From contig NZ_KE992087.1 of assembly GCF_000466425.1 (NCBI RefSeq), positions 1 through 49,620 on the forward strand: a stretch of 49,620 nucleotides of DNA. The letters run 5' to 3'. The stretch comes from Capnocytophaga sp. oral taxon 863 str. F0517 (GTDB lineage Bacteria; Bacteroidota; Bacteroidia; Flavobacteriales; Flavobacteriaceae). The position numbers were made by a program, and so were the translations under genes. The notes under the pieces were generated by a model. It was not told the DNA's origin and did not search any database. It saw only the letters and a program-made list of their open reading frames with translations. Positions 9,778 to 46,779 of the stretch are shown here, piece after piece (the stretch's first letter is position 1; the number at the start of each line of letters is the position of its first letter).

Positions 9778-9850
9778 GTTTGAGTTTTGAGTTGTAAGTT
9801 TTGAGTTGTAAGTAACTCAAAATTAAAAACTCAAAACTCAAAACTTTTTT
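9778..9850 (+). terminator. GAGTTTT repeat hairpin after nosY
   Basis: Left-arm copies of TTTTGAG (9778-9793, with more internal copies) and right-arm ACTCAAAACTCAAAAC (9829-9844) form a long inverted repeat followed by TTTTTT. It doubles as the nosY terminator and sits immediately ahead of the oxyR promoter. Confidence 0.7.
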
Positions 9851-27525: not shown

Positions 27526-28483
27526 AAGTATAAATATGAGTATTTAGGTCGTATAAGATTATTTCTTTAGGAGGTTGTTTCATATATTTGAACAAATCAG
27601 CCTTCATGGTTTGGAGGTCAGAGGGGGTTATCTCCTCTATTTTGATAATATCTCCTTTCTGCCATAGTTGTCCTTGGTAAGGAACCGCCTGGGTGACTAA
27701 GTAACAATTGCTCTCACCTATGCGGCTAAGCTGCCTTAGGGTATCGGCCTGGGCGGAGGACATCCCTGATACCAAATGGGTTACCTCACCAGCTACAGAG
27801 TGTACACCCCAGCAGAAAACCGGAAGGGCTACCCGCAGCGGCAAGGGATAGTCCCTTAGGGCAGAGAGGTACTTTTGGGCAGTGGCACGATCATAGATAG
27901 CGTTAGCCCCAGTGGCGGTAATCTTGCCCATGTTATAGTACATCAGCACTCCCTCCTCCACAGGGGGAATCCCCGTGGTATGGTGGTACTTGACCTGATG
28001 GAGGCGAATGGTAGCCGAGAGACGATAAGGGTTTTCCGCCTTGAAGCGCTGGACAAACTCAAAATAAGGTTCCCGACTCTTGAGCGACCAATCACAATCC
28101 AGCTGTACCTCTGAGACGGAGAGCTTGTAAGTGCGATTGATCTGTGCGATATATTGGCTCAGTCTTTCCGAGAGCTGCTCTACAGAGACCTCCCTATTGA
28201 GGAACACCTCATTTTTAATATAGATCACCGGGACAATCTCCTTTCCCTTAAGGTGGGTGGTATCCATCTCCACGGGAGCATCGGGGACGGCCTCTCCCTC
28301 CCTAAGGATGATATCACAGTAGCGCACATAGAGTCTTTGGATATGATAGTCCTGAAGGAACTGCTGCGCTGGTGCCTCCAAGCGAAAGAAAGTCTTCCAA
28401 TAATACACACTCAACTGGGCGGGCGCCTGTTTTTGCTGGCAAGCCCAAAAGAGAGGGAAAAAGAGATATAAAACCTTTCTCAT
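27494..28483 (-). CDS. Lipoprotein with glycosidase-like TIM-barrel pattern, unknown function
   Basis: The 329-residue protein has a lipobox FWAC (Cys15). Its strand-helix order and motifs (LYVRYCDIIL, VQLDCDWSLKSREPYF, LSATIRLHQVKY, GVLMYYNMG, LRVALPVFCWGV) suggest a TIM barrel like GH18/DUF3142-type proteins, with LDCDW where a catalytic acidic pair would sit. That is inference from pattern only. It overlaps rloB by 4 nt (ATGA) and the helical lipoprotein gene by 32 nt, so the three are co-translated. Confidence 0.65.
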   Translation of the reverse strand: MRKVLYLFFPLFWACQQKQAPAQLSVYYWKTFFRLEAPAQQFLQDYHIQRLYVRYCDIILREGEAVPDAPVEMDTTHLKGKEIVPVIYIKNEVFLNREVSVEQLSERLSQYIAQINRTYKLSVSEVQLDCDWSLKSREPYFEFVQRFKAENPYRLSATIRLHQVKYHHTTGIPPVEEGVLMYYNMGKITATGANAIYDRATAQKYLSALRDYPLPLRVALPVFCWGVHSVAGEVTHLVSGMSSAQADTLRQLSRIGESNCYLVTQAVPYQGQLWQKGDIIKIEEITPSDLQTMKADLFKYMKQPPKEIILYDLNTHIYTYEKDFFKKLR

Positions 28484-29121
28484 AGGGACATCATTTCTTT
28501 GAAAAAAGGATAAATACTTTGTGCTAAATAATGTACTTCCGTTGTATATAAGATAGGTTGTCCCTTATCATCTTTCTCAAAATGTTTCAGACTATGATCT
28601 ATCGCTGTTTTGATATGTATAGGTGCCTTGCGAGTATCAAAGCCCCCTTTTATCTTATGATTTAAGTATTCTTTGAAGCTGGAGTATGACTTCACCTCTT
28701 GCACTTTAGGTTTCTCCTCCATAAAATGGTAATATAACCAAACTTCAAAAGAGGGGTTGCTTTGACTTACTTCCCAACTATTCTGGTCTGTTTTATTCTC
28801 TAAGCAAAAGTTCTTCAATTGTGCTATTTTTTCCTTTTCATTCCAGCGATCCGTATCAATAACAAACCACACTTCATCATGATAATCAGCATTCAAGGAA
28901 GTTTTCTGAAAATATACAATGGCCTGATCTTTGAGCTTTACAGGGTCGGACTTACCTTCTTCGCTCCCAATAGGAATAATATCAATATTCGAAGATATAC
29001 CCGTAAAATAATTAAAATAGCTTACTTCTCTATCTCCTTCACAAAAGATATAAACCTTTTTAGCATCTCGATTGGGGGGCTGTCGCTGGTATATTTTATT
29101 TCTCGTTAGATATGTTTTCAT
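28480..29121 (-). CDS. RloB-family Toprim-like protein (intact)
   Basis: The 213-residue protein has the RloB hallmarks: FCEGDREVSYF (Cys27, Glu28, Gly29), VWFVIDTDRW (Asp89 and Asp91) and SNPSFEVWLYYHF. The Glu plus Asp-x-Asp set resembles Toprim active sites, and such proteins are the likely nuclease effectors of AbiL/RloAB-type and related phage-defence pairs. It overlaps the ATPase gene upstream by 26 nt. It is AT-richer than the genes downstream, suggesting acquisition. Confidence 0.85.
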   Translation of the reverse strand: MKTYLTRNKIYQRQPPNRDAKKVYIFCEGDREVSYFNYFTGISSNIDIIPIGSEEGKSDPVKLKDQAIVYFQKTSLNADYHDEVWFVIDTDRWNEKEKIAQLKNFCLENKTDQNSWEVSQSNPSFEVWLYYHFMEEKPKVQEVKSYSSFKEYLNHKIKGGFDTRKAPIHIKTAIDHSLKHFEKDDKGQPILYTTEVHYLAQSIYPFFKEMMSL

Positions 29122-30466
29122 CCGTATGCCAATTGAGTTCTTTTAGATTTGATAAAAAGGGAATACCTCCATAACGTCCATTGAGATAACCATCTTCGAT
29201 ATTAGCTGTATTACTGATATTAAAATCACTTAGCGAATACATATGAGAGACGCCTGCTTTGTCCTTTTGTGTAAACCAAATCTCATCGGTACGCAATATT
29301 TGCTGATCTAACAGACATGATTCATGGGTGGTGAAAATAAGTTGCCCCCGAGCTGTAGTATCCCATGATATTTTTTTTATCAGCTCTTTTATCATCATAG
29401 GATGAATGCTACGTTCTATTTCATCTACCACATACACTGTCTCATGATTGATCACGTCACTGATCATAGGAGCGTATTCTAACAATCGCTTGGTGCCATC
29501 GGATTCTAATCTCAAGGGGAAATGCTCTCTATAACCTCCCTTGCCTAAATGCTCTGTAAATAGTCGCTTGGTATAAAGTTGCTCGTTTTCATCTAAGACG
29601 ATACCTACTTCTTCATTAGTAAGATCATCGTAGAGTGTAATTATCCCATCTCCTTCTTTTCTTATTCTATCGATTAGTTCCTTTTTGTTTTCTTCACTAA
29701 GATTAGGGAAGGTATTCTCTATCTTCTCTTTTTCTATATAGATTCTTTCGATACCAGCACTAAGATTCGGTATAAATGTATTGATAAAGTGGCGCATATG
29801 ACTATTTGCATCAAAGGAATGCACCATCCCATTTACCTGAAAAGTGGGAGAAAGAACCACAAGGTTTCTTGAAAACCAATTATATACCCTATCAATATCT
29901 GGATATTCATTAGGGTATTTCTGAGAAAGAAAGGTAAGTAATAGCTCTTCCTTACCAAGGAGCTTATCCGAGAGTATTTCTAAAAATAATCGCTCTTTCT
30001 CATCTTTTACCTCCCTTTCGATAAAAGGAATTTCTTGTTTTTCACCTATTAGACTTCGCTCAAATATAATACGATCTCTTTCCTTAAAACTCTCAAGCAG
30101 TGTCTCATTAAGAATTTTTTTATGATCAAAGGTAAGGGTATAGTAATATATTTTTCCATCTGATAGAAATTCTATAGCCAATGAGATAGGTTCCTGTAAT
30201 GTGTCTTTGTTCAACCTAAATTTGTAAGTATTGACCTTACCCATTATCTTTCCCTCTCTTATTGTCCTTTGTAACAGCGCAATAGCCCTTACAAAATTAG
30301 ATTTTCCAGAGGCATTGGCTCCATAAATAGCGCTTAGGCGAAGGATATCAATTCCTTTGTAGTGCTTTTTATGATGTGACAACTGTTCAGAATGATTCGT
30401 TAGGAGGTTGAACTCTGTTTCCGCTCCGAATGAATATAAGTTTTTTACCTGAAATCGTATAAGCAT
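29096..30466 (-). CDS. RloA-family AAA/ABC-like ATPase (intact)
   Basis: The 456-residue ATPase of the AAA15/21 (COG1106) group has Walker A YGANASGKSN (around residues 48-57), signature ESDGTKRLLEYAP, Walker B TVYVVDEIERSIHP with catalytic Glu, and switch His in IFTTHESCLL. It pairs with the overlapping RloB gene. Families of this kind sense phage components and control the Toprim partner. A minus-strand TACCTTTG box lies upstream. Confidence 0.88.
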   Translation of the reverse strand: MLIRFQVKNLYSFGAETEFNLLTNHSEQLSHHKKHYKGIDILRLSAIYGANASGKSNFVRAIALLQRTIREGKIMGKVNTYKFRLNKDTLQEPISLAIEFLSDGKIYYYTLTFDHKKILNETLLESFKERDRIIFERSLIGEKQEIPFIEREVKDEKERLFLEILSDKLLGKEELLLTFLSQKYPNEYPDIDRVYNWFSRNLVVLSPTFQVNGMVHSFDANSHMRHFINTFIPNLSAGIERIYIEKEKIENTFPNLSEENKKELIDRIRKEGDGIITLYDDLTNEEVGIVLDENEQLYTKRLFTEHLGKGGYREHFPLRLESDGTKRLLEYAPMISDVINHETVYVVDEIERSIHPMMIKELIKKISWDTTARGQLIFTTHESCLLDQQILRTDEIWFTQKDKAGVSHMYSLSDFNISNTANIEDGYLNGRYGGIPFLSNLKELNWHTDENISNEK

Positions 30467-30806: not shown

Positions 30807-32204
30807 ATGAAGAATTATGATGTGATTGTCATAGGAGCTGGCCCAGGAGGCTATGTGGCTGCTATTCGTTGCGCTCAATTAGGAAAGAAAACGGCTATTG
30901 TAGAGAAATACAGTACCTTAGGGGGCACTTGCCTGAATGTAGGCTGTATTCCCTCCAAGGCGCTCTTGGACTCCACACACTTGTTGGACGATGCGCACAA
31001 GCATGCTCCTATACATGGAATCGATATTGCGGGAGAGATTACCGTAGATTTTCCTAAGATGGTAGCCCGCAAACAAGCCGTGGTAGACCAAAACACTCAG
31101 GGAATCAACTTTCTGATGAAAAAGAACAATGTGGATGTATTCCACGGAAAGGCTTCGTTCGTCTCTCCCACCGAGCTACAGGTACAGGGAGCCGAGAGCG
31201 AAACACTTTCTGCTACCCACTTTATCATTGCCACAGGATCTAAGCCATCGGCTTTGCCTTTCATCTCAATTGACAAAGAACGTGTGATTACCTCCACCGA
31301 GGCCTTGAGCCTGAAGGAGGTGCCCAAGCACCTAATTGTGATAGGTGGGGGCGTGATTGGCTTGGAGCTTGGCCAAGTATACCTCCGCTTGGGTGCTCAA
31401 GTATCCGTAGTGGAATACGCTGCGAGCATCCTCCCTACTATGGATGCCGCCATTGGTAAGGAACTTAGCAAAGTGCTTAAAAAACAAGGCTTTGAGTTCT
31501 ATACCGACAGCAAAGTAAAAGAGGTAACCCGCACTGGGGATACCGTTACTGTAAAAGCCGATGGGCCTAAGGGAGAGATTGTTCTCGAAGGTGACTACTG
31601 CTTAGTGGCTACCGGCCGCCGTCCCTATACAGAAGGCTTAGGCCTCGACAAGGCTGGGGTACAGCTCAACCAACGCGGTCAAATAGAGGTGAACGACCAC
31701 CTACAGACCTCCGCCGCTCATATCTATGCCATAGGAGATGTGATCCGCGGGGCTATGTTGGCTCACAAAGCTGAAGAAGAAGGGGTCTATGTAGCGGAAC
31801 TTTTGGCCGGAGAGAAGCCTCATGTGAATTATGACCTCATCCCAGGGGCTGTCTATACCACCCCTGAAGTGGCAGCTGTAGGTAAGACCGAGCAACAGCT
31901 ACAAGCGGAAGGCCGCCCCTACAAGGTAGGTCAGTTTCCCATGCGTGCCTTGGGTCGTGCCCGTGCGAGCCTTGAGACCGATGGCTTTGTAAAGGTCTTG
32001 GCCGATGCTACTACAGATGAGATCCTTGGGGTACATATTCTCGGAGCACGTGCATCCGACCTTATCGCCCAATCGGTAGTGGCTATGGAGTACCGCGCCA
32101 GTGCAGAGGACATCGCCCGTATCTGCCATGCTCACCCTACTTACAGCGAAGCCGTGAAAGAAGCCTGCCTCGATGCTACTGCTAAGAGAGCGATACACAT
32201 GTAA
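30807..32204 (+). CDS. lpdA: Dihydrolipoyl dehydrogenase (E3)
   Basis: E3 re-oxidises dihydrolipoamide in 2-oxoacid dehydrogenase complexes and the glycine cleavage system. The 465-residue protein has the FAD motif VIGAGPGGYVAAI, the redox disulfide GGTCLNVGC (Cys42, Cys47), an NAD motif VIGGGVIGLELG and the C-terminal catalytic pair in HAHPTYSEA. No E1 or E2 gene is adjacent. A GTGAAGA-type repeat hairpin follows. Confidence 0.97.
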   Translation: MKNYDVIVIGAGPGGYVAAIRCAQLGKKTAIVEKYSTLGGTCLNVGCIPSKALLDSTHLLDDAHKHAPIHGIDIAGEITVDFPKMVARKQAVVDQNTQGINFLMKKNNVDVFHGKASFVSPTELQVQGAESETLSATHFIIATGSKPSALPFISIDKERVITSTEALSLKEVPKHLIVIGGGVIGLELGQVYLRLGAQVSVVEYAASILPTMDAAIGKELSKVLKKQGFEFYTDSKVKEVTRTGDTVTVKADGPKGEIVLEGDYCLVATGRRPYTEGLGLDKAGVQLNQRGQIEVNDHLQTSAAHIYAIGDVIRGAMLAHKAEEEGVYVAELLAGEKPHVNYDLIPGAVYTTPEVAAVGKTEQQLQAEGRPYKVGQFPMRALGRARASLETDGFVKVLADATTDEILGVHILGARASDLIAQSVVAMEYRASAEDIARICHAHPTYSEAVKEACLDATAKRAIHM

Positions 32205-32274
32205 GTGAAGAGTGAAGAGTGAAAAGTGAAGAGTGAATAACAGTTTTTCACTCTTCACTTTTCATTATTCACTT
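32205..32274. terminator. AGTGAAAAGTGAAGAGTG repeat hairpin between lpd and batE
   Basis: Four tandem GTGAARA copies on the left face TCACTCTTCACTTTTC copies on the right, giving a long stem with TTTTTC in the loop region. It fills the whole space between the convergent genes. Confidence 0.65.
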
Positions 32275-33552: not shown

Positions 33553-35682
33553 TTAATCACATGCAGTGGTTCTAACTTTAGAGCGATAGAGGGTTTCCTT
33601 GGCAGCTCCTGCAGCTCCATTAGAGCCTGTTTTAGAATAGATGATTTTATCCTTAATCAATTGCTCTTTTCCTGAAGGTACCGCAATACACTCTATGTGG
33701 TTAGGAGTTGTATTAGCCTCTGTGATGCGTACCTCCTCAAGGCTTCGGAAGCCACGTAGATCCAGCTTGGTTATATTTCGATTTTCATCCAATTCTACAA
33801 GTTTAACTCTAGGAGCATCCCCTACAATATTTTGAATAGTACCTGAACCTGACAAAGTTATTTCCTCCAATTGTAACATAGTAGAAACATCAATGGTAGT
33901 AGGCCCTTGTGGGTATAGAGTCAGTTTCTTAAGTTTTCTAAAAGCTTCCAATCCAGTAAGATCCCTTACATTGTTATCTACTGTGAACTCAGTTATCTTA
34001 TCGACATCGGACTGAGTAATGGGATCATTATCTGAACGTCTTCCATACAATGGCCTATCTATTGCTTTGAGCTTCTCCAAAGTAATTTTCTTAAGTCTTG
34101 CACTATTGAAAGTGATAGGTGTATTATTGGAACCTCCTCCTGTCACTGAGGTATACTTAGAGGTCTGTTCTGCTGTATTGAGTGCAGTTTCCTCATCTGC
34201 AGTATTTACAATAATACTGGTTACCTCAGTATTGGTTCTTGTACCTTGGTATGCTCTTACTATTTGGAAAGTTCCTGCATTAGTTGCGAGGTTCTGTATA
34301 GGTCTCAAGTTGATTTCTCCCTGAATGCTATTCTGCAAGAGGTTCAGTGAATTAATCTTTGTCAAAGTATTGAAAAAGTCTCCAGCAATAGCTGTAAGGC
34401 TATTATTTTGCAAATTTAACACTTGGAGTTCTGCTACCTCAGAGATTGCAATCTTATCCAAGCTACCATTAGTTACAAAAATTTTAGTCAGCTTAGGGGC
34501 GTTCTTAACCTCTAATTCCTTTAAATTAGAATTGTATATTCCGAAGGATTCTATGTCTGGGAAGTCAGAAAAAGAGATTGTCTTAGAATCGTTATTGAGT
34601 TCCATTCTGCCACTTCCTCCAGATACTCTTAGAGATTTTATTTTTTTGAAAAACTCTAATCCCTTTAGGGAACGTATCTCAGAAGACTCTATATCTATTC
34701 TTTCTGAATAACGAGCTGCCTCGGAAATAGTAATAGCTCTATCCCCATTTCTATCAGGACTTGGGTTAAGAACCAAAAGCTTGGCTAGCAGAATAGGATC
34801 AAGCTCTTCCAATATACGATCTACATTAGAGCTAGCTGTATATTTGCCTGTACCATCAGAGGTATTGAGGCTATTGGCTAAATTATCACTATAGACTTTT
34901 ATCTTAGTCACCCCTGAGTTACCACTATCTCCTTTCATGATTTCAACTTTTCCATTTTGTAGGTTACTCAATAGAGAGAAGTCCAATTCTCCTTTTAGAC
35001 GGTTTCCCTTAAGTTTTATTTCTTGAAGAGCAGTGAGCATATTAATGTTTACTGTCTCAAGCTGGTTATTGGTAGCTTCTAAGACTTGTATATTTTTAAA
35101 ATGTTCGATTCCATCCAAGGAAGAAATTCCCACATTAGGCACCCTCACTGCCTGGGCAGCTAAAGCCTCTGCTTTGGATATTTTACCATCGCCATTGGTA
35201 TCTGCCTTCAGTATTCCCTCTCCTCCGGTAAGAAGTGCATTTCTGAAACGCTCATCACGTATATAGATTTCATCCGATACTTCTGTCCAAGTTCCTGATT
35301 TTTTTTGGTAAACCTTAGTATCCTCTTTGGTATTAACATAGAAATCATTTTCAGCGCCTACACTTGAGTCAGGCGCTCCTTCTCTGACATAGAGTTTGTT
35401 TCCTTCAGCAAAGGTTGGGAGGGAGGCCTTTACAGTTGCTGCTCTTCCTGATGCATCTCTTTTATAAAGTGTCTTGGAGCGTTTGTCTACATAATAGCCT
35501 AACTCTGTTGGGTTAGGAGCACCATTCCCTTGCGAAGCCTGTGTTATTGTAGCTGTTCCATTTCCTCCTCCACTACTTCCTCCTCCGCTTTCAGGATCTT
35601 TGTTGTCTTTGTTACAACTTACAGCCAAGGCTGCAATGGCACAAGTGGTCAGCGCCAAGAGCATGTGTATTCTTTTTCTCAT
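33553..35682 (-). CDS. Surface lipoprotein with leucine-rich repeats and an EF-hand-like loop
   Basis: The 709-residue protein has a lipobox VSC (Cys23) followed by NKDNKD, similar to the Lys/acidic export signal of Capnocytophaga and other Bacteroidota surface lipoproteins, then a Gly/Ser linker. Residues 161-172 (DTNGDGKISKAE) form a perfect EF-hand-type calcium loop. The rest shows three diverged blocks, each with LRR-like strands (LEATNNQLETVNI, LQVLNLQNNSLTAI, LKKLTLYPQGPTTIDVS). It is probably an exposed binding protein; the ligand is unknown. The region is AT-richer than its neighbours. Confidence 0.75.
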   Translation of the reverse strand: MRKRIHMLLALTTCAIAALAVSCNKDNKDPESGGGSSGGGNGTATITQASQGNGAPNPTELGYYVDKRSKTLYKRDASGRAATVKASLPTFAEGNKLYVREGAPDSSVGAENDFYVNTKEDTKVYQKKSGTWTEVSDEIYIRDERFRNALLTGGEGILKADTNGDGKISKAEALAAQAVRVPNVGISSLDGIEHFKNIQVLEATNNQLETVNINMLTALQEIKLKGNRLKGELDFSLLSNLQNGKVEIMKGDSGNSGVTKIKVYSDNLANSLNTSDGTGKYTASSNVDRILEELDPILLAKLLVLNPSPDRNGDRAITISEAARYSERIDIESSEIRSLKGLEFFKKIKSLRVSGGSGRMELNNDSKTISFSDFPDIESFGIYNSNLKELEVKNAPKLTKIFVTNGSLDKIAISEVAELQVLNLQNNSLTAIAGDFFNTLTKINSLNLLQNSIQGEINLRPIQNLATNAGTFQIVRAYQGTRTNTEVTSIIVNTADEETALNTAEQTSKYTSVTGGGSNNTPITFNSARLKKITLEKLKAIDRPLYGRRSDNDPITQSDVDKITEFTVDNNVRDLTGLEAFRKLKKLTLYPQGPTTIDVSTMLQLEEITLSGSGTIQNIVGDAPRVKLVELDENRNITKLDLRGFRSLEEVRITEANTTPNHIECIAVPSGKEQLIKDKIIYSKTGSNGAAGAAKETLYRSKVRTTACD

Positions 35683-38412: not shown

Positions 38413-38420
38413 TATCTTTG
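38413..38420 (+). promoter_or_regulatory. -7 box of the second RloAB-like pair
   Basis: TATCTTTG, 27 nt ahead of the ATPase ATG; so the pair has its own consensus promoter. Confidence 0.6.
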
Positions 38421-38447: not shown

Positions 38448-39719
38448 ATGATTATACAAGACTTTAGCTTTGGCAATTTTCGTTCTTTCAAGGAAATACA
38501 AACGCTAAGCCTGACAAAGGCGAAGCTAACGGCCAAGAAAGACAAGGTTTTGGAAGAGAGTCATACCTTTGTTCATCAAAGAGATGTTTTTTTGAAATCA
38601 AAAGCCATCTATGGGGCGAATGCCAGTGGGAAAAGCAATTTGGTGAAGGCCTTGTCTGTTTTTTTGAAAATCATCTCTCAATCTCTTAAGAATGAAAAGG
38701 TATTGGAATTGATTAACAGTTTTAGGCTCAGTGCCGATAGCATGGAGCGCCCTTCCTTCTTTCAGATGATTTTTTGGATAGATGAGACCAAGTACCGCTA
38801 TGGCTTTGAGGCTACCGATAAGGCCATACAGTCCGAATGGCTCTATGAGAAGAAAGGAAAAAAAGAGACTTGTTATTTTATCCGAGAAAACCAAGCTATC
38901 AGCTATCTGAATGAGACCTTGTTCAAGGAAGGGGATATCTACCTTGGACTTGCCCAACAGGAAGAAGGGAACAAGGAGTTCCTCTCCCCTACAAGTCTTT
39001 TCCTAAAAATGCTCACCTCCTTCCCCTTTGCCAAAATCTCCAAGGCCATTGTCGAGGGATTTGAGCGTATCAAAGTGCTGAGCGGCTTGGGTACCCCTGA
39101 AATGACGGCCTATGCACGGGAAGCCCTAAGAGTACCCGCCAAGAAGTCCTTCATGCTTGAGATGCTCAAAAGAGGGGATACAGCCGTGGAAAAATTAGGC
39201 TTTTTGGAGCTGGATAACGACAATACGGAGGGCTTAGAGGCTCCTAAAAAGCGTTCGGTATTGCTCTCGGCCAAAAAGCTCAACCGCGTAGATACGGACA
39301 AGATTCCGCTCTCACTCTTTGCCTTCGAAGAATATGAGTCCGAAGGTACCCAACGCCTCTTCGAATATGCGGCCTACCTATACGATGCCCTCCACCAGGG
39401 AAATGTGCTAATCATAGACCAATTCGATAGCCAACTGCATCCCCTGCTGGCCAAGCGGCTGGTGGACTTGTTCAACAGTGCTGCCAATACCCATAGCCAA
39501 ATAATCTTCGTTACTCAAAATACCCAACTCATGGAGGAGAACCTGCTAAGGCGTGACCAAATTGCCTTTGTAGAGAAAGACCGACAAGGAGGAAGTCACC
39601 TCTATTGCTTGGCAGAGATAAAAGGGGTAAAAACGGAGGCTCACCAAAGAGAGTACCTCTGTGGCCGATATGGTGCTACGCCTGTTGTAGGTGATTTTAA
39701 AGAACTTTTTGAAATTTAG
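38448..39719 (+). CDS. RloA-like ATPase with altered catalytic residues
   Basis: The 423-residue COG1106-type protein is built like RloA. Walker A YGANASGKSN is intact (about 55-64), as is the signature-like ESEGTQRLFEYA. In Walker B, IIDQFDSQLHP carries Gln325 where the catalytic Glu is expected (IDE in the pair at 29096), and the switch histidine is Gln357 (FVTQNTQ against FTTHES). Both substitutions predict ATP binding without normal hydrolysis. The frame is undamaged. The partner gene starts 3 nt after its stop. Confidence 0.85.
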   Translation: MIIQDFSFGNFRSFKEIQTLSLTKAKLTAKKDKVLEESHTFVHQRDVFLKSKAIYGANASGKSNLVKALSVFLKIISQSLKNEKVLELINSFRLSADSMERPSFFQMIFWIDETKYRYGFEATDKAIQSEWLYEKKGKKETCYFIRENQAISYLNETLFKEGDIYLGLAQQEEGNKEFLSPTSLFLKMLTSFPFAKISKAIVEGFERIKVLSGLGTPEMTAYAREALRVPAKKSFMLEMLKRGDTAVEKLGFLELDNDNTEGLEAPKKRSVLLSAKKLNRVDTDKIPLSLFAFEEYESEGTQRLFEYAAYLYDALHQGNVLIIDQFDSQLHPLLAKRLVDLFNSAANTHSQIIFVTQNTQLMEENLLRRDQIAFVEKDRQGGSHLYCLAEIKGVKTEAHQREYLCGRYGATPVVGDFKELFEI

Positions 39720-39722
39720 ACC

Positions 39723-40412
39723 ATGGCAAAGAAAAGAAAAACAACTCAGAAGCAGACCAAAGCGGTCAAAGCGACCCGATATACCAAGCATATCCCTAAC
39801 CCTGAGGAACCGACTCCCGCTTGGGAGCTACTGAAGGAGCCTTACGAATATAGTGAGAAACGTAGCTTGCGCAAAACCATCTTGGTGGTATGCCAATCCA
39901 AAGAAGAAGCTGCCTACTTCAAGTCTTTTCCTATAGCCTCCTTAACGGTGGTACCCCCTCGGGAAGAGGAAGCCACACCGCTGGATACCGTTCTCTACGC
40001 ACAGGAGATTGTCAAGGCTACTGCACATGATTTCGATCAAGTATGGTGTGTGTGTAGAACCAGCCCCGAGCAGACCAACTCCTTGGAAGCAGCTACCAAG
40101 AAAGCCCATAGCCTGGGCTATCGCATCGTCTATAGCAATGATAGTTTCGACCTATGGATATGGCTCCACTATGGAGAAATGCAGGAAAACTACCAACAAG
40201 CCTTGAGAGAAACCCTACAAATCGACCCTGAAAAAGGGAAAGACCTTTTCTTCTATAAGAGACTCTATAACCAACTCGAAGAAGACCCTCGCGCCCAACG
40301 CTCCTTAGCCATCGAACGTGCTAAGAAATTATACCTGGCACAGGAAAAACTTCCCTACGCCTCCCAATCCCCTCTGACCAATCTCTATGAACTGGTAGAA
40401 AACCTTCTATAA
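39723..40412 (+). CDS. RloB-like protein lacking Toprim catalytic residues
   Basis: The 229-residue protein aligns by eye with the RloB at 28480 in three places: ILVVCQSKEEAAYF for IFCEGDREVSYF, VWCVCRTS for VWFVIDTD, and SNDSFDLWIWLHYG for SNPSFEVWLYYHF. The catalytic-type Glu is Gln58 and the two Asp are Arg112 and Ser114. It also has a basic N-terminal extension (MAKKRKTTQKQTKAVKATRY). Hydrophobic fold positions are kept, so a structural or binding role is more likely than nuclease activity. Confidence 0.75.
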   Translation: MAKKRKTTQKQTKAVKATRYTKHIPNPEEPTPAWELLKEPYEYSEKRSLRKTILVVCQSKEEAAYFKSFPIASLTVVPPREEEATPLDTVLYAQEIVKATAHDFDQVWCVCRTSPEQTNSLEAATKKAHSLGYRIVYSNDSFDLWIWLHYGEMQENYQQALRETLQIDPEKGKDLFFYKRLYNQLEEDPRAQRSLAIERAKKLYLAQEKLPYASQSPLTNLYELVENLL

Positions 40413-40415
40413 TAA

Positions 40416-40527
40416 CAAATGACGAGTGACAAGTGACTAATTATCAGAATGAAATTAATCACTTGTCACTCGTCATTTGTCACTTGTCATTTGTCACTTG
40501 TCACTTGTCACTTGTCGTTAGTCACTA
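40416..40527. terminator. AAGTGAC/GTCACTTGTCA repeat hairpin between RloB-like and moxR genes
   Basis: Tandem ACGAGTGACAAGTGACTAA on the left faces seven or so tandem CACTTGTCA copies on the right. The left copies can pair with any of several right copies. It lies between convergent genes and ends at the moxR stop. Confidence 0.65.
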
Positions 40528-41517
40528 TTAAGGTACTTCTATAGTGTTGATAATCTTATTGATAATCTCCACAGAGGTAACATTTTCGGCTTCGGCCTCG
40601 TAGGTGATACCGATACGGTGACGTAAGACATCGTAGATGACCGAGCGCACATCCTCAGGCACTACATAACCACGGTGGTGAATAAAAGCATGACACTTAG
40701 CCGCTACCGCTAAGCTGATGCTACCACGAGGGGAAGCGCCAAACTGTATCAGAGGACTAAGCTCCGCAAGCTGATACTTCTCTGGATAACGGGTAGCAAA
40801 GATAATATCCAAGATATACTTCTCAATTTTTTCATCCATATAGACCTCATAAGCAACCTTTTGGGCATGTAGGATTTGCTCAAGGCTCACCACTGGATTG
40901 ACCTTTGGATGAGTACCCTGTAGGTTATTGTGCATAATCTGTTGTTCTTCCTGTAGCTTGGGATAGTCGATTACGACCTTGAGCATGAACCTATCTACCT
41001 GTGCTTCTGGTAGTGGGTAAGTCCCTTCCTGCTCTACAGGGTTCTGAGTGGCCATGACCAAGAAAGGCTTATCCAAGGCGAAAGTAGTATCCCCTATGGT
41101 CACCTGTTTTTCCTGCATCGCTTCAAGCAAGGCCGATTGTACCTTGGCAGGGGCACGGTTGATCTCATCGGCTAAGACAAAGTTGGCAAAGATAGGCCCT
41201 TTTTTGATAGAGAACTCATTTTGCTTGACATTGTAGGTCATCGTACCGATCACGTCGGCCGGTAGCAAGTCGGGGGTGAACTGTATACGACTAAAAGACC
41301 CCTGTACGGACTTAGCTAAGGTATTGATAGAAAGCGTCTTGGCCAGCCCTGGCACCCCTTCCAGAAGGATATGTCCCTGACCTAAGAGACCTATAAGGAG
41401 TGCATCCACCATATGCCGCTGGCCAATGATGACCTTGGACATCTCGGAGGTAAGCTGCTCTATAAAGACACTTTCTCGTGCTATTTTTTCATTGATTTGG
41501 CTAATATCAACACTCAT
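40528..41517 (-). CDS. MoxR-family AAA+ ATPase
   Basis: The 329-residue protein has Walker A LEGVPGLAKT, Walker B FVLADEINRAPAK, sensor MATQNPVEQEGTYPLPEAQVDRF and a C-terminal lid with PRGSISLAVAAK. MoxR proteins act as chaperones with VWA-domain partners. In relatives it begins the batABCDE operon; here no bat gene or DUF58 gene adjoins it, while batE is at 32275. Confidence 0.95.
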   Translation of the reverse strand: MSVDISQINEKIARESVFIEQLTSEMSKVIIGQRHMVDALLIGLLGQGHILLEGVPGLAKTLSINTLAKSVQGSFSRIQFTPDLLPADVIGTMTYNVKQNEFSIKKGPIFANFVLADEINRAPAKVQSALLEAMQEKQVTIGDTTFALDKPFLVMATQNPVEQEGTYPLPEAQVDRFMLKVVIDYPKLQEEQQIMHNNLQGTHPKVNPVVSLEQILHAQKVAYEVYMDEKIEKYILDIIFATRYPEKYQLAELSPLIQFGASPRGSISLAVAAKCHAFIHHRGYVVPEDVRSVIYDVLRHRIGITYEAEAENVTSVEIINKIINTIEVP

Positions 41518-46645: not shown

Positions 46646-46779
46646 TCTTTCTAATAGTTAATAGTTAATGGTTAATGATTAATGGTTAATTGTTAATGAT
46701 TAGTCGCTGGTCGCTGGTCACTAGTCACTGGTCACTAGTCACTAGTCACTAGTCATTAGTCACTGGTCACTAGTCATTA
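46646..46779. repeat. TTAATGG and GTCACTAGTCACTGG tandem words inside the phage cassette
   Basis: The left part holds five or six copies of GTTAATN; the right part is nearly pure tandem CACTAGT/CACTGGT (about ten 7-nt copies). No promoter box is seen. It is the longest repeat in the window and lies between two structural genes of the same operon. Confidence 0.7.

What the first reader, a model, noticed from the sequence alone, without database searches (positions are those of the whole stretch)
38448..40412. An intact but catalytically erased RloA/RloB-like pair
Both reading frames are complete and keep their promoter, Walker A and fold motifs, yet the catalytic residues are gone in both partners. 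In the ATPase the Walker B Glu is Gln325 (IIDQFD) and the switch His is Gln357 (FVTQNT). In the partner the Toprim-type Glu is Gln58 and the two Asp are Arg112 and Ser114. The intact pair at 28480-30466 shows what is expected (VVDEIE, FTTHES, CEG, IDTD). Losing active sites in both proteins without stop codons or frameshifts suggests selection for a non-catalytic role: an ATP-locked sensor, a decoy for phage inhibitors, or a brake on the active pair.
Basis: partly seen in the sequence, partly recalled or inferred. Interest (0 to 1): 0.88.

Follow-up and report, generated by a model that had tools for sequence, protein, structure and literature searches.

The report
A defence gene pair, catalytically silent
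In one Capnocytophaga genome a two-gene antiviral system has lost the working residues of both its ATPase and its nuclease, yet both genes are intact and look kept by selection, so it may now act as a non-killing part of the cell's phage defence.

Summary
Both frames are complete; Q325 and Q357 (ATPase) and Q58, R112 and S114 (partner) stand where relatives carry Glu, His, Glu, Asp and Asp. By profile the pair belongs to RloB/AbiL-type ATPase+Toprim systems, in a Capnocytophaga genome. Of 127 surveyed pairs with every site visible, 122 are intact in both partners; this is the only one without the Walker-B Glu. A second, distant pair (L124) has His->Gln in the ATPase and Glu->Gly in the partner.

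Silent sites are saturated. Neutral drift that spares both frames yet removes all five residues has joint probability at most 5e-7. ATP-binding motifs are untouched (0 of 21 invariant positions changed); hydrolysis motifs are hit (7 of 16). A retained, non-catalytic pair is therefore favoured. Its role is inferred: most likely an ATP-clamped, non-firing complex that restrains or buffers an active RloAB system, the best candidate being an intact pair on another contig.

Limits: one genome. None of 19 other Capnocytophaga species genomes has a close copy, so clade conservation is untested. The partner is clearly relaxed, and slow toxin-first decay remains a serious rival.

The parts
38448..39719 (+). 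A: OLD/AAA_21-type ABC ATPase, RloA/AbiLi-like, catalytic residues replaced
39723..40412 (+). B: RloB/AbiLii-like Toprim partner, catalytic acids replaced
38613..38639 (+). Walker A GANASGKSN (residues 56-64), kept
39336..39350 (+). ABC signature ESEGT (residues 297-301), kept
39420..39422 (+). Q325 in place of the Walker-B Glu
39516..39518 (+). Q357 in place of the switch (H-loop) His
39642..39668 (+). Degraded C-terminal motif (residues 399-407; SFEKDY..GK in relatives, one residue deleted)
39894..39896 (+). Q58 in place of the Toprim Glu
40056..40064 (+). R112-T113-S114 in place of D-x-D
38413..38420 (+). TAnnTTTG promoter-like box (weak evidence)
   Evidence: 42 such boxes on the + strand of the window
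40415..40480 (.). Long perfect hairpin made of inverted 7-nt repeats after the pair, between convergent genes
   Evidence: 40405-40530 folds at -42 kcal/mol, z -6.2
28480..30466 (-).

Best explanation
A retained, non-catalytic RloAB/AbiL-like pair. A still binds ATP and assembles, but with Glu->Gln and His->Gln it should stay clamped on ATP and not complete the cycle. B still folds and docks but has lost its metal-binding acids, so it should not cut RNA. Such a complex cannot fire. Most likely it restrains or buffers an active RloAB system in the same cell, by binding the same triggers or partners or by joining mixed rings with the C6 pair. Shown: the residue changes, the open frames, the sparing of ATP-binding motifs, constraint on A. 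Inferred from ABC and Toprim chemistry: ATP clamping and loss of nuclease activity. Speculative: the brake or buffer role. My estimates: catalytically dead about 0.9; kept by selection for a non-catalytic role about 0.7; ATP-clamped about 0.55; brake or buffer about 0.3.
For: The replaced sites are near invariant in 127 full pairs. In A, 0 of 21 invariant positions in Walker A, Q-loop region and signature are changed, against 7 of 16 in Walker B/D-loop and switch (p=0.001; regions set after seeing the changes). Changes in A: 4 of 64 invariants up to residue 302, 15 of 48 after (p=7e-4). Residues 1-141 of A match C6 at 62-72%, close to C6 against C. bilenii (66-76%), while residues 283-423 fall to 46-57% against 70-87%. 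Replacements at A invariants are conservative in 16 of 18 (10.3 expected, P=0.003). A neutral stretch of 0.1 substitution per codon or more lowers the A likelihood; the best joint probability of no stop in A and B with all five catalytic residues lost is 4.7e-7. Papers (passages): Walker-B Glu->Gln locks ABC proteins ATP-bound and Glu loss is often joined by H-loop changes (PMC7756269); GajA lacks ATP hydrolysis (PMC12796447; PMC10568477); preserved inactive nuclease domains are proposed as decoys (PMC12839542).
Against: One genome only. B is strongly relaxed: branch 1.86 against 0.37-0.45 for the sister paths, 21 of 60 invariants changed, replacements not conservative (9 of 18, 10.9 expected). 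A has also lost much of a conserved C-terminal motif (6 of 13). Silent sites are saturated, so constraint on the branch can be measured only by assuming a clock. Codon adaptation is low (22nd and 39th percentile). His->Gln can be tolerated: ABCC1 NBS2 keeps near-normal transport (PMC7756269). [quoted passage not shown] In the genome of L124 the RloB profile finds only L124 itself, so a brake on a sister pair is not a general rule. The clustering tests share one alignment and are not independent.
Confidence: 0.42

Rival explanations
1. Slow, toxin-first decay. The partner lost its nuclease, the ATPase then had nothing to control and lost hydrolysis, and the remaining constraint reflects folding, or harm from a misfolded or half-active protein, not a new job.
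For: B is more relaxed than A in branch length, invariants changed and clock-based exponent. Among 127 pairs three have a changed partner with an intact ATPase and none the reverse. Toxin loss is common: 7 of the 81 places listed and 1 of 61 have stops inside the RloB match.
Against: No stop or frameshift in 652 codons although silent sites are saturated; changes at A invariants are conservative and spare ATP-binding motifs.
Confidence: 0.33
2. Decoy: the dead pair is kept to absorb phage inhibitors or triggers aimed at active RloAB pairs, without mixing with them.
For: The genome holds three intact RloAB-like pairs; a decoy role is proposed in print for inactive nuclease domains (PMC12839542 passages).
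Against: No inhibitor or trigger is known for these pairs; the erased pair is diverged from the active ones, most in B.
Confidence: 0.13
3. Recent loss of catalysis followed by ordinary neutral drift (a young pseudogene).
For: Absent from the other species searched; a neutral stretch of about 0.03 substitution per codon in A is not excluded.
Against: Maximum joint probability 4.7e-7 for five lost catalytic residues with no stop; five residues in two genes need at least seven base changes by my count.
Confidence: 0.05
4. Still active by altered residues or with a different substrate.
For: B keeps the second Glu (E62) and much of the S-N-D-x-F-x-L-W block; some OLD proteins tolerate Walker-B changes (PMC12796447 passages).
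Against: Both Asps and the first Glu of the two-metal site are gone; AriB E26A is inactive (PMC12409363 passages).
Confidence: 0.07

Closest known systems
AbiL (AbiLi/AbiLii) and RloB-linked ATPase pairs
   Same: Top PADLOC models for both proteins, Pfam RloB and AAA_21 above cut-off, two adjacent genes. RloB and AbiLii are linked to OLD_TOPRIM in PMC10440598 (passages).
   Different: Catalytic residues of both partners are replaced.
PARIS (AriA/AriB), class 4 OLD
   Same: Separate ATPase sensor and Toprim effector; AriA hexamer holds AriB (PMC12409363 passages; PMC11455837 whole text); ATPase or Toprim mutations abolish defence (PMC9122126 passages).
   Different: The partner matches RloB, with no DUF4435 match; its active sites are lost in nature.
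GajA of Gabija (class 2 OLD)
   Same: An OLD ATPase reported to keep nucleotide binding but lack hydrolysis (passages).
   Different: GajA keeps an active Toprim nuclease; here the nuclease is lost too.
Degenerate ABC sites (ABCB2/B3, ABCC7 and others)
   Same: Loss of the Walker-B Glu together with H-loop changes (passages).
   Different: Those are transporters or channels; heteromer formation is not shown here.

Membership tests
RloAB / AbiL | Partner matches the RloB profile above its curated cut-off | tested here: met
   87.1 bits against 31.5
RloAB / AbiL | Adjacent AAA_21/OLD-type ATPase gene | tested here: met
   114.9 bits against 27; 3-nt gap
RloAB / AbiL | Toprim acids (first Glu/Asp, D-x-D) in the partner | tested here: not met
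   Q58, R112, S114
RloAB / AbiL | Walker-B Glu and switch His in the ATPase | tested here: not met
   Q325, Q357
RloAB / AbiL | Abortive-infection activity | not testable with these tools
   needs phage assays
PARIS (AriAB) | DUF4435 (PF14491) effector, the detection rule in PMC9122126 | tested here: not met
   no DUF4435 match at E<=0.1
Pseudoenzyme (non-catalytic homologue kept by selection) | Catalytic residues absent while frame and binding motifs are kept | tested here: met
Pseudoenzyme (non-catalytic homologue kept by selection) | Erased state conserved across a clade | tested here: inconclusive
   only one of 20 Capnocytophaga genomes holds it; no same-species genome available
Degenerate ABC heteromer | Complex with a catalytically complete ABC partner | not testable with these tools
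   candidate partner is the C6 pair

The most novel reading that the evidence does not exclude
A natural non-firing RloAB complex: an ATP-clamped sensor holding a dead nuclease, kept to set the threshold of a live sister system by subunit mixing or trigger titration, much as degenerate subunits do in heteromeric ABC proteins. Change in both partners may recur (the window pair and the distant L124 pair).
Probability: 0.22. Interest if true: 0.78.

Novelty: new variant of a known kind. Interest (0 to 1): 0.52.

Why it matters
Suicide-type phage defences must avoid firing by accident. A kept, catalytically silent copy would be a simple way to set the trigger threshold or to trap phage counter-defence, and it would warn annotators that profile hits to RloB or AbiL do not guarantee an active system. 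If it is only a slowly dying system, it is still an example of the order of loss: effector first, ATPase second.

Tried and rejected
Solved structures: single proteins gave nothing useful; profiles gave weak PtuA and SMC hits for A and nothing credible for B. Viral contigs: no relative of A, one distant relative of B. Plasmids and phages: A in 171 plasmid records, all under 60% identity; B in 2 plasmid records and 1 phage record, all under 60% (A was not run against phages). Looking for an erased clade around L124: 1 other genome of 4 in its genus and 5 others of 80 in its family have a relative of the partner; where a pattern search could read the neighbouring ATPases they keep Glu (4 of 4) and His (3 of 3).

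Host-like GC3 as a sign of high expression was rejected: most ribosomal-operon genes have lower GC3, and the pair's codon adaptation is low. One search's gain for relaxed B came from a bound on branch length: with the bound lifted it disappears (log-likelihood -4177.2 against -4176.7), so time and relaxation can be told apart only with a clock. The A and A+B background fits stopped on time, unconverged; fixed part of their parameters at those values, and the clock drift fit for A was not fully optimised. In trees with fewer rows the place of B is open, and grouping the erased pair with C6 and G007 alone is not rejected (p-AU 0.082 for A, 0.128 for B), so the age of the split is uncertain. L103 (Glu->Gly) may be misaligned; L055 (second Asp->Asn) is mild; L172 (broken partner) was not among the 127. 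In the invariant-column test of B, G620 was dropped (broken frame) and G075 had no B in the set; three of the 21 B changes are the D-x-D columns, aligned as gaps there. Four RloB places were not fetched (G1066:C36, G853, G1282, G1167:C201). Models from four-row alignments were modest (A mean pLDDT 62.0, B 58.8); no fold search ran.

Full report
WHAT IS THERE. Two complete, adjacent genes lie at 38448-39719 and 39723-40412. By profile they are an AAA_21/OLD-type ATPase (A) and an RloB-like partner (B); the top PADLOC models are AbiLi and AbiLii. The genome is taken to be a Capnocytophaga because the only match among named genomes is C. bilenii, which is also one of its congeners. It holds three other RloAB-like pairs: one on contig C6 (A 54%, B 41% identical), one on C4, and the pair at 28480-30466. 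Below, 'erased pair' means 38448-40412.

HOW RARE. Among 28 A and 23 B homologues from the genus, family and order searches, only the erased pair lacks these residues where they are visible (the own C4 partner has Asp for the first Glu). I then took RloB-profile matches from 395 genomes of the class (48 with a match) and 395 of the phylum (66 with a match; the two sets overlap), fetched stretches for all but four of the listed places (and the loci of the searches), and read the motifs by profile alignment. After removing duplicates there were 142 loci, 127 with every site of both partners visible. 122 are intact in both, with Asp allowed at the first Toprim position (12 loci have it). Five have a changed partner: the erased pair, L055 (second Asp to Asn), L103 (Glu to Gly, alignment uncertain), L105 (Glu to Ser and both Asps lost) and L124 (Glu to Gly). 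Two of the five, the erased pair and L124 (His to Gln), also have a changed ATPase; none has a changed ATPase alone. The association is p=0.0012 with the discovery case and p=0.03 without it, and it counts the mild and uncertain changes.

ANCESTRY. In the full trees the erased A and B are sisters of the three intact Capnocytophaga pairs (C6, G007, C. bilenii), with support 100/100 for A and 97/91 for B. Its branches are long: A 0.69 against 0.33-0.37 for the sister paths, B 1.86 against 0.37-0.45. With fewer rows the place of B is open, and a tree with the erased pair inside the C6/G007 lineage is not rejected. The C6 pair sits in a collinear block shared with G007 over about 15 kb. The erased pair's site, between a YihY-like gene and a MoxR gene, is empty in G007, where about 150 bases separate the two. 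None of the other 19 Capnocytophaga genomes has a partner closer than about 40%. The erased pair has GC3 0.527 and 0.524, near the 70th percentile of 174 ORFs of its genome, while its other three pairs lie at 0.27-0.35. I read this as long residence, not high expression, since codon adaptation is low.

IS IT DRIFTING? Silent sites on its branch are saturated. For A a final stretch of free drift is disfavoured: log-likelihood -8201.8 without it, -8205.3 at 0.1 and -8210.2 at 0.2 substitutions per codon. For B alone a neutral stretch improved the bounded fit a little (-4191.8 to -4187.3). Under a clock tying its branch to the sister path, selection is relaxed but not absent (exponents 0.65 for A and 0.46 for B, where 1 is the background and 0 neutral), and this fits better than a drift stretch (A -8206.1 against -8214.1, B -4178.8 against -4196.8). 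Without the clock, time and relaxation cannot be told apart. A second argument does not need the clock: a neutral period long enough to lose all five catalytic residues should have produced stops. The best joint probability over all durations is 4.7e-7 (A alone 1.3e-3, B alone 5e-4). The pair was picked for looking odd, so this is not a clean p-value. Selected loss followed by a short neutral time is not excluded.

WHERE THE CHANGES FALL. Of 112 A columns invariant in ten intact relatives 19 are changed (leave-one-out controls on the intact rows: 1 to 13). Of 60 B columns invariant in eight intact relatives 21 are changed (controls 0 to 22, the 22 being G035). In A the ATP-binding elements are untouched (0 of 21) and the hydrolysis elements are hit (7 of 16); a C-terminal motif is also degraded (6 of 13) and the RRDQ block is untouched (0 of 9) (motif assignments recalled, regions set after seeing the data). 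Replacements at A invariants are conservative (16 of 18, 10.3 expected); those in B are not (9 of 18, 10.9 expected). Predicted models of modest confidence place strands at 320-326 and 351-356 in A and at 53-57 and 106-112 in B, next to the replaced residues, as expected for ABC and Toprim folds.

HOW IT MAY WORK. In PARIS an AriA hexamer holds AriB and releases it on sensing a phage protein (PMC12409363 passages; PMC11455837 whole text); ATPase and Toprim mutations abolish defence (PMC9122126 passages). In ABC proteins Walker-B Glu to Gln gives stable ATP-bound states and Glu loss is often joined by H-loop changes, though ABCC1 tolerates His to Gln (PMC7756269 passages), and in the OLD protein Cran1 Walker-B changes to Ala did not affect the ATPase (PMC12796447 passages). 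I expect a complex that binds ATP, holds its partner and does not fire. The most likely use is to restrain or buffer a live RloAB system, for which the C6 pair is the only close candidate; that step is speculation. A decoy role is in print for inactive nuclease domains of BREX-related systems (PMC12839542 passages). The listings of nine paper searches, in open-licence papers only, showed no paper on erased RloAB pairs.

VERDICT. The particular role is unproven, and slow toxin-first decay is the main rival.

Noticed in passing
L124 (G1433:C14:45996-47958): A distant RloAB pair with switch His->Gln in the ATPase and Toprim Glu->Gly in the partner, both frames intact; GC3 0.31-0.33 against 0.42-0.48 for neighbouring ORFs.
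   Followed up: partly
L105 / L194 (G1004:C1:403537-404022): RloB partner with Glu->Ser and both Asps of D-x-D lost, beside an intact ATPase.
   Followed up: partly
window 9783-9845, 32204-32237, 40415-40526, 46652-46776: Intergenic arrays with a 7-nt period and different units, several as inverted pairs that fold into long hairpins. GTGACAA-type units recur genome-wide (229+287 matches against 140+209 for the reversed control).
   Followed up: partly
L018, L047, L106, L172, L189: Partner gene read in more than one piece; in the four with visible ATPase motifs (not L172) these are intact.
   Followed up: no
window 33553-35682: Large ORF with a lipoprotein-like start and GC3 0.313, low for its surroundings and like the defence pairs.
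   Followed up: no
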